DNA of 64,000 bases from Chthoniobacterales bacterium (GTDB lineage: Bacteria; Verrucomicrobiota; Verrucomicrobiia; Chthoniobacterales; DASVRZ01), in contig JBDSQB010000016.1 of NCBI GenBank assembly GCA_039930045.1, forward strand, positions 248,001 through 312,000, written 5' to 3'. Shown piece by piece: positions 227 through 2,855 of the stretch. The position numbers and the translations under genes are program-made. The notes beneath the pieces are model-generated. The model was given only the letters and a program-made list of their open reading frames with translations. It searched no databases and was not told the origin of the DNA. Each line of letters opens with the position of its first letter. The first letter of the stretch is position 1.

Positions 227-355
227 AGCATCATTTTCCGCGAAAGGGCGCGGGCTTGGAAGTGTGGCCGGTGATGGCACTTGAGGACAAGTGCCCTCCA
301 AGGGGTGCTGGAGGGCATCGGTCCTCAGATGCTGGTTCCTCTCAATTCGGGAGTC

Positions 356-565
356 GGAAATGGGTTTACTGTCGGGAGAAACCGCATTTCCGACCACAGG
401 AATGGGGTTATTTTCCAGAAGACCTGCATTCCCGATCCCGGGAATGGGCTTATTTTCCAGAGGGTGGCCCTTTCGGGAGCCGGGAATGGACTTATTTTCC
501 AGAGGGTAGCCCATTTCCGATCCCGACATGGAGGTATTGGCGAGAGGGTAGCCATTTCGGGATGG
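356..565. repeat. 42-bp imperfect tandem repeat, five units
   Basis: The marker 'aatgg' followed by a TTATTTTCCAGA-like stretch recurs with exact 42-base spacing; the AT of the marker falls at 360, 402, 444, 486 and 528. Units 2-4 are the most alike; units 1 and 5 are degenerate. Because 42 is a multiple of three, each frame gives a 14-residue periodic peptide (for example SREWAYFPEG), but no start, domain or ribosome site supports translation. Confidence 0.8.
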
Positions 566-694: not shown

Positions 695-831
695 GGGGAG
701 CGCACGCGACTCGCGTGCGGATGGGGGCGACTCGCCCCCATTGTCTGATTCCCTTTCGCGGTGCCGCATTGCTGCTGGAACGCAGTTTCGGCGAGTCGCC
801 GAAACCCACACGCGAGTCGCGTGTGCTCCCC
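695..831. repeat. Palindromic element A: four hairpins with a shared core, inverted-repeat ends
   Basis: The two ends form a 24-bp near-perfect inverted repeat beginning GGGGAGC. Inside are four perfect hairpins at 701-719, 721-741, 786-804 and 807-825. All share the 7-base centre CGACTCG (first two) or its complement CGAGTCG (last two). Their arms differ completely: CGCACG, ATGGGGG, TTTCGG and CACACG, each matched by its complement. The end sequence is shared with element B at 2289-2477, so this is a dispersed family. It resembles paired REP or MITE elements; no transposase lies nearby. Confidence 0.8.
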
Positions 832-886: not shown

Positions 887-955
887 GGTAGGGACATGTG
901 GCCTCGCATGTCCTTGGACCGCATGGAGCAGACGAGCGGGGCCGCTCGTCCTACC
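887..955. repeat. Inverted pair of GGTAGG-bounded hairpins
   Basis: Two hairpins face each other. The left one (887-913) runs GGTAGGGACATG, a GGCC-containing centre, then CATGTCC. The right one (931-955), read on the minus strand, is GGTAGGACGAGCGG, a CC centre, then CGCTCGTC. Boundary and GGCC-type core are shared while the arms differ but remain self-complementary. It sits just beyond the 3' end of pyrC and could also stop transcription. Confidence 0.65.
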
Positions 956-2264: not shown

Positions 2265-2855
2265 TTAGAAAAATGTGGCAACGTCTCCGGGAGCGCACGC
2301 GTCTCGCGTGTTCTTTGAGGTGTTTGCTTTGCGCTTCCGCGCAAACCCTACGGGCTGCCTGCGGCAGGCTATCTCGCCCCGCTCGGTTCGCCTCAAAGCC
2401 GAGTTAGAGAGAGGACCATTTACGTCAAAGCCCTTTCGCGAGACGCAAAAGGGAACACGCGAGACGCGTGCGCTCCCGGAAGAGCGGCTTGCGCCGGAGA
2501 CTTCTGGCGTGCTGATGGCGAGAAGTTTCTGGAAATGAGCGGTGCGCTCTTGGGTGAGTTGCGTCTGCGTGTTAGAATAAATGAGAGAGGCCAGACTGCC
2601 GCCTCGGGCCTCATCATCGGCGGCGTAATCGGCTTCCGCATCGCGAAAAACGACCCACGCGCGCTGGGCGGTCTTCAGTTTTTCCCTAGCCTCTGCGTCG
2701 CATTGGGTGAGCAGTTTCTGATAAACTTTATTGAGGCGCGTATCGGCTTTTTCAAAGTTCCGCTGCGCCACCAAGTTCATCTCCCTCTGACTTTGGGAGA
2801 AAGCGCTCGCGACCGTGACGACGACTAACACAAGAATGAGCAGGAGGCGGTTCAT
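2265..2855 (-). CDS. LprI/DUF1311-like secreted protein with repeat-derived C-terminus
   Basis: Residues 1-20 form a signal peptide (hydrophobic run ending ASAFSQ). Residues about 24-110 resemble the DUF1311/LprI family of small periplasmic proteins: a helical region with conserved YxxLL and QRAWxxFRDAE-like motifs. Only one Cys remains, where many members have a disulfide pair. From about residue 125 the frame runs into palindromic element B and reads low-complexity Arg/Ser sequence until a TAA directly before pyrC, so the true gene probably ended earlier. The start overlaps the DUF1003 stop by four bases (ATGA), implying coupling. The role in a pyrimidine operon is unknown. Confidence 0.7.
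   Translation of the reverse strand: MNRLLLILVLVVVTVASAFSQSQREMNLVAQRNFEKADTRLNKVYQKLLTQCDAEAREKLKTAQRAWVVFRDAEADYAADDEARGGSLASLIYSNTQTQLTQERTAHFQKLLAISTPEVSGASRSSGSARVSRVPFCVSRKGFDVNGPLSNSALRRTERGEIACRRQPVGFARKRKANTSKNTRDACAPGDVATFF
2289..2477. repeat. Palindromic element B with perfect 24-bp terminal inverted repeats
   Basis: Bases 2289-2312 and 2454-2477 are exact reverse complements over 24 positions. Each end is itself a hairpin around CGTCTCG or CGAGACG. An internal hairpin at 2431-2453 has the same CGAGACG centre but different arms (CCCTTT/AAAGGG), and another small hairpin lies at 2357-2369. The ends match those of element A apart from the central base change (ACT to TCT). The element is read through by the LprI-like frame and separates that gene's conserved part from pyrC. 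Confidence 0.85.

What the first reader, a model, noticed from the sequence alone, without database searches (positions are those of the whole stretch)
695..831. Hairpin array with one constant core and four unrelated but complementary arm pairs
Four hairpins in 137 bp share the 7-base centre CGACTCG (two) or CGAGTCG (two). Their arms are CGCACG, ATGGGGG, TTTCGG and CACACG, each exactly complemented. The constancy is at the tip and the variation in paired arms, the reverse of a simple duplication with drift. This suggests selection or a copying mechanism that retains pairing, for example ssDNA transposition of REP-like elements or an RNA/protein recognising the tip. The mirror order of cores gives the whole element an inverted-repeat form.
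Basis: partly seen in the sequence, partly recalled or inferred. Interest (0 to 1): 0.65.

Follow-up and report, generated by a model that had tools for sequence, protein, structure and literature searches.

The report
Miniature RAYT transposon with four hairpins
The hairpin array is a small, non-coding mobile element of the bacterial REP/RAYT kind, one of about 50 in this genome, and the one full-length version with the matching transposase gene sits, unusually, in frame inside the only recG DNA-repair gene.

Summary
The four hairpins at 695-831 are real and far beyond chance. They are not four unrelated hairpins: the two outer ones are inverted copies, and only the two inner ones have unrelated arms. 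The same four-hairpin element recurs about 50 times in this Verrucomicrobiota genome. Ends are constant (GGGAGC plus outer hairpin); inner hairpins have fixed length and a shared tip, but a dozen or more stem sequences that covary strictly. The genome's only closely related transposase gene, a REP-associated tyrosine transposase (RAYT), lies inside a full-length element with the same four hairpins. A constant tip with freely varying but paired stems is what published assays of group-3 RAYTs would predict; that link is inferred here. Two features look new. Inner left and right hairpins almost always differ while outer ones match. And this RAYT lineage lives in frame inside housekeeping genes: recG here, and RecG, AlaRS, MetH, ThrRS or CarB in 68 of the 80 best homologues, at recurrent sites, with at least 18 host changes on the RAYT tree. 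I found no paper describing this. Mobility, tip recognition and host-protein function are untested.

The parts
695..831 (.). Complete non-autonomous element (MITE-like REP doublet), ACT-loop subfamily, 137 bp
   Evidence: 42-nt inverted repeat; homologous copies in own genome
695..700 (+). Left terminal tag GGGGAG, the counterpart of the GTAG/GGAG foot of REPs
   Evidence: tag conserved in 117 of 117 parsed ends of RAYT elements: GGGAG 76, GGTAG 41
701..719 (+). Outer left hairpin CGCACGCG-ACT-CGCGTGCG
721..741 (+). Inner left hairpin ATGGGGGCG-ACT-CGCCCCCAT (variable stem, constant tip)
742..784 (.). Linker between the half-elements; in the full-length copy the RAYT gene occupies this place
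785..805 (-). Inner right hairpin GTTTCGGCG-ACT-CGCCGAAAC read on the minus strand
807..825 (-). Outer right hairpin CACACGCG-ACT-CGCGTGTG read on the minus strand
825..831 (-). Right terminal tag (GGGGAGC on the minus strand)
2289..2477 (.). Second copy of the same element family in the window (TCT-loop subfamily); its left inner hairpin carries a nested insertion in its tip
   Evidence: L063

Best explanation
The array is a non-autonomous miniature element mobilised, now or in the past, by a REP-associated tyrosine transposase (RAYT, an HUH/Y1 enzyme acting on single-stranded DNA). Each end is a GGGAGC/GGGTAGC tag followed by two hairpins with a 3-nt loop; the two ends face each other. The full-length version has the same ends with a RAYT gene between them (shown). 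The enzyme most likely reads the tag and the hairpin tip and needs an unbroken stem but little stem sequence, so stems may drift as long as both arms change together (inferred from covariation here and from assays of other RAYTs). Left and right inner stems differ so that each folds on itself instead of the whole element closing into one long hairpin that the enzyme cannot use or that the cell destroys (inferred).
For: Copies: 95 end matches in own genome, 0 for the reversed control; 45 elements with both inner hairpins read. Cognate gene: the Y1_Tnp/RAYT at G000:C1:49458-49925 is flanked within about 60 nt on both sides by the same outer and inner hairpins; NF047646 92.8 bits against cut-off 80; both HUH histidines and the tyrosine are invariant in ten relatives; profile match to TnpAREP 4er8 at 7e-6. 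Architecture conserved across the phylum: tag, outer hairpin, inner hairpin in both ends of 52 RAYT elements. Covariation: own genome score 0.81 against 0.25 shuffled and at most 0.22 slid; across species 0.786 against 0.199. Tip versus stem: left-right identity of inner arms is 0.87 in the 4 loop-proximal nt and 0.42 in the 5 distal nt. PMC8266576: in group-3 TnpAREP the loop trinucleotide and a perfect stem are required, stem sequence matters little. Pyrimidine tract before the tag at both ends, 84% Y against 41% further out, as expected for a preferred cleavage or target site.
Against: No movement was observed. The window copy has ACT loops, while the only close RAYT of this genome has TCT loops; a RAYT element with ACT loops exists elsewhere (L199) but the enzyme that moved this copy is not identified. 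No target-site duplication or left-right flank similarity. Outer and inner loops agree in 50 of 117 ends against 18 expected, but only 1 to 6 phylogenetically independent pairs bear on it, so tip-enzyme co-evolution is not proven. In own genome no inner pair is homotypic (0 of 45, 7.5 expected, P about 1e-4), but counted over 16 distinct combinations this is not significant (P 0.45).
Confidence: 0.85

Rival explanations
1. The array is an RNA or terminator element kept for the host, for example a bidirectional terminator or mRNA stabiliser between two convergent genes.
For: It lies between the end of a response-regulator-like reading frame (stop about 226, plus strand) and a dihydroorotase gene on the minus strand (about 983-2264), and REPs elsewhere are often transcribed (PMC3733652). 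RNA fold z = -9.2.
Against: No T-run after any of the four hairpins; the scan finds no terminator in the array. No Rfam family matches. The same element occurs in many contexts and around a transposase gene.
Confidence: 0.1
2. Pairing is kept by a mutational mechanism (template switching that turns imperfect palindromes into perfect ones), not by selection for recognition.
For: Would give perfect stems of any sequence around a fixed centre, as seen.
Against: Several recurrent stem types keep the same mismatch in copy after copy (pair 4 of types A, D and F; a G-T wobble in B and C), so stems are not steadily corrected. Stem length is fixed at 9-10 bp and the tag and outer hairpin are conserved too.
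Confidence: 0.1
3. The copies are sites for a host DNA-binding protein or for gyrase (BIME-like) and spread only by duplication.
For: E. coli REPs bind host proteins (background knowledge).
Against: Does not explain a cognate transposase gene nested in the same ends here and in relatives across the phylum, or a nested insertion that travelled with two copies (L063 and L048).
Confidence: 0.04

Closest known systems
REPINs / REP doublets with RAYT (Pseudomonas, E. coli)
   Same: Inverted pair of tagged palindromes with variable spacer, many copies, one cognate RAYT, compensatory changes in the hairpin (PMC3116915); long hairpin and clover folds both possible, as found here.
   Different: Two hairpins per end, not one; tag GGAG in this genome, GTAG only in part of the relatives; inner stems are interchangeable modules and heterotypic.
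TIRtrons / TIRYT elements with double palindromic TIRs
   Same: RAYT gene flanked by long terminal inverted repeats, some made of two palindromes, some as dispersed families (PMC3733652).
   Different: That paper's TIRYT consensus is GGGGWSAS, here GGGGAGC or GGGTAGC; inner-hairpin variation and in-frame hosts are not described in the main text.
Rickettsia palindromic elements (RPE) and intragenic REPs, including Opitutus terrae
   Same: Palindromic elements tolerated in frame inside protein genes, often DNA repair or tRNA synthetase genes (PMC3733652).
   Different: There only the short repeat is inserted; here the whole transposase gene is in frame inside the host gene.
Inteins
   Same: Selfish coding insert in frame in conserved housekeeping proteins at recurrent sites.
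   Different: No intein or Hint domain in the RecG frame; the insert is a transposase between DNA hairpins, and no splicing is known.

Membership tests
REP/REPIN-RAYT system | Short palindromes in many dispersed copies | tested here: met
   51 forward and 44 reverse matches, control 0
REP/REPIN-RAYT system | Inverted doublet | tested here: met
   Outer and inner hairpins mirrored in the complete copies
REP/REPIN-RAYT system | Conserved tetranucleotide GTAG (or variant) at the foot of the hairpin | tested here: inconclusive
   GGAG in own genome; in RAYT elements of relatives GGTAG in 41 and GGGAG in 76 of 117 ends
REP/REPIN-RAYT system | Cognate RAYT gene flanked by the same repeats | tested here: met
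   L009/L093 element; NF047646 over cut-off
REP/REPIN-RAYT system | RAYT cuts and joins ssDNA at the hairpin | not testable with these tools
   Needs biochemistry; HUH and Tyr residues intact
IS200/IS605 insertion sequence | Asymmetric left and right ends, several near-identical tnpA copies | tested here: not met
   Ends are mirror images and there is one close gene copy in the genome
Classical MITE | Target-site duplication | tested here: not met
   Left and right flanks no more alike than between elements (102 against 97.8, p 0.29)
Intein | Self-splicing Hint domain | tested here: not met
   Pfam scan of the 938-aa RecG frame lists only helicase-type families
Intrinsic terminator | G+C-rich hairpin followed by T-run | tested here: not met
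   None in 695-831

The most novel reading that the evidence does not exclude
The full-length form of this element is an intein-like lifestyle of a RAYT transposon. The transposase gene and its hairpin ends persist as an in-frame insert in single-copy housekeeping genes (RecG, AlaRS, MetH, ThrRS, CarB), translated by the host gene, re-inserting again and again at the same tolerant loops, and throwing off miniature intergenic copies such as the window's array.
Probability: 0.75. Interest if true: 0.8.

Novelty: new variant of a known kind. Interest (0 to 1): 0.62.

Why it matters
It supplies natural, phylum-wide covariation data on what a RAYT needs in its DNA: tip and pairing, not stem sequence. 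It also bears on an open remark in the REP literature, why heterodimers prevail (PMC3733652 says there is no obvious explanation). The in-frame residence of a transposase inside essential enzymes would be a second route, besides inteins, by which a selfish gene becomes hard to lose, and it poses a direct question: do RecG and AlaRS work with about 190 extra residues, or is the insert removed? An earlier survey set aside unexpectedly long Y1 transposase proteins as fusions or annotation errors (PMC6006769), so such cases could have been missed.

Tried and rejected
Rfam search of the window: no match. Four unrelated arm pairs: rejected, the outer pair is homologous. Terminator reading: no T-runs. 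Target-site duplication: none seen. Phylogenetically independent contrasts for loop agreement of outer and inner hairpins: too few pairs to decide. Avoidance of identical inner hairpins: strong by copies, not by distinct combinations; the cross-species comparison (5 of 52 inner pairs identical against 29 of 52 outer pairs) is the better support. Small in-frame inserts at the same RecG site in two relatives (L238, L239) turned out to have no REP hairpins. Single-sequence PDB search found nothing; the profile search did. Paper searches for a RAYT inside RecG or AlaRS found nothing on it, in an open-access library only.

Full report
Observation. The window holds four perfect hairpins at 701-719, 721-741, 785-805 and 807-825 between GGGGAG (695-700) and GCTCCCC (825-831). 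They are four of seven long palindromes in 64 kb; four in 140 bp never occurred in 30 Markov sequences. The outer two are inverted near-copies, the inner two have unrelated arms. All four share a tip, best read as a 3-nt loop ACT (AGT on the other strand) closed by C-G pairs.

Copies. In the window's own genome (3.52 Mb, 23 contigs, 99.9% complete) the outer-end pattern has 51 forward and 44 reverse matches with up to 3 mismatches and none for the reversed control. Reading the places gives one anatomy, usually 103-104 bp: GGGAGC, outer hairpin GCACGCG-TCT-CGCGTG, one or two bases, inner hairpin with a 10-bp stem and a TCT loop, a short linker, then a second inner hairpin and the outer hairpin in mirror orientation. 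The window array belongs to a smaller subfamily with ACT loops (also L010-L013, L016). A second copy of the main family lies at 2289-2477.

Covariation. Thirty-two distinct inner hairpins of the own genome (alignment A2) form 95.6% standard pairs (67.4% when 3' letters are shuffled); 9 of 10 pairs change on both sides; the covariation score is 0.81 against 0.25 shuffled and at most 0.22 when slid. Fifty-two inner hairpins from RAYT elements of other species give 97.1%, 10 of 10 pairs and 0.786 against 0.199. Hairpins were located by their place next to the outer hairpin with a loose pairing threshold, so percentages paired are somewhat favoured; two-sided changes are not. Stems come as recurrent modules (for example CCAGCGGACG, CTTTGAGGTG, CCCTTTTGCG, CTTGCCGGCG) that appear on either side.

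The transposase. The only strong Y1_Tnp-type gene of this family in the genome lies at G000:C1:49458-49925, between the same hairpins on both sides. It passes NCBIfam's REP-associated tyrosine transposase model (92.8 bits, cut-off 80). Its HUH histidines and catalytic tyrosine are invariant among ten relatives. A profile finds E. coli TnpAREP (4er8) in the PDB. So the window array is the element without its gene.

How it probably works. Assays of group-3 TnpAREP show that the loop trinucleotide and an unbroken stem are needed while stem sequence matters little (PMC8266576). In 117 parsed ends of RAYT elements the tag is GGGAG (76) or GGTAG (41), loop-proximal bases agree between left and right inner hairpins (0.87) and distal ones do not (0.42); left and right outer arms are identical in 29 of 52 elements, inner arms in 5 of 52. 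As ssDNA the window element folds most stably with the outer arms paired to each other and the two inner hairpins as side arms; if the inner arms were identical it could close into one long hairpin. The authors of the REPIN work suggested that the long hairpin is not recognised by RAYT while a clover form is (PMC3116915), and Di Nocera et al. suggested that heterodimers escape SbcCD (PMC3733652). Unequal inner arms fit both; neither is tested here. A pyrimidine tract precedes the tag at both ends and could be the cleavage or target site.

The full-length copy is in frame inside recG. The reading frame of 938 aa passes both the RecG equivalog (783.9 bits, cut-off 718) and the RAYT model, and no other recG was found: the next hit is a 38%-identical 1125-aa frame, Mfd by its length and similarity. 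Most relatives searched have an uninterrupted recG there; the site is a loop of variable length. Among the 80 best homologues in species genomes, all Verrucomicrobiota or near it, 68 have more than 80 aa of open frame on both sides. Hosts are RecG (30), AlaRS (27, two sites), MetH (10, two sites), ThrRS (5), CarB (1) and PriA (1, cut by the contig end); 6 are free-standing. Host families were confirmed by NCBIfam for AlaRS, MetH, ThrRS, CarB and weakly PriA. More distant RAYTs sit in LeuRS, ValRS and ClpB frames, named by eye from the sequence. On a tree of 82 RAYTs at least 18 changes of host are needed (shuffled 44), with RecG and AlaRS each needing several. So insertion at the same sites happened repeatedly, or was lost often. 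In an even sample of 289 genomes of the phylum 9 have a strong match, and the seven strongest lie in frames of 730 aa or more.

Novelty. REPs inside genes, palindromic elements in frame in Rickettsia, RAYT genes with double palindromic ends, and compensatory changes in REPINs are known (PMC3733652, PMC3116915). What I did not find is a whole RAYT element living in frame inside housekeeping genes, or the modular heterotypic inner hairpins. The library is open-access only, so absence there is weak evidence.

Limits. All is inference from sequence. Most related genomes are metagenome-assembled, though the pattern repeats over many independent assemblies. The window array's own mobiliser is unknown, because its loops (ACT) differ from those of the only close RAYT copy (TCT).

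Noticed in passing
L093 (G000:C1:47958-51066); also L094, L096, L099, L101-L103, L107, L116, L117, L120 and 68 of the loci L128-L207: RAYT transposase embedded in frame inside RecG, AlaRS, MetH, ThrRS, LeuRS, ValRS, CarB, ClpB; same sites recur in distant species.
   Followed up: partly
window 887-955; L123 (G000:C3:105600-107600): Remnant of a second element family, GGTAGGGACATG...GGACGAGCGGGCCGCTCGTCC, whose full copy carries another RAYT-like gene (219-aa frame); only 5 ends of this type match in the genome.
   Followed up: partly
window 2289-2477 and L048 (G000:C6:136461): Two copies share a nested insertion of about 85 nt in the tip of the left inner hairpin, itself with inverted repeats, so it probably travelled with the element.
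   Followed up: no
window 330-560: Several diverged repeats of about 40-60 bp around GGAATGGGCTTATTTTCCAGAGGGT in the intergenic region left of the array.
   Followed up: no
L016 (G000:C5:9389-9417) and L018 (G000:C6:79049-79075): Solo forms: one hairpin with tags at both ends, GGGAGCGCACGCG-TCT-CGCGTGCGCTCCC, as if the middle of a complete element had been deleted (compare the double-foot REPs of PMC6006769).
   Followed up: no
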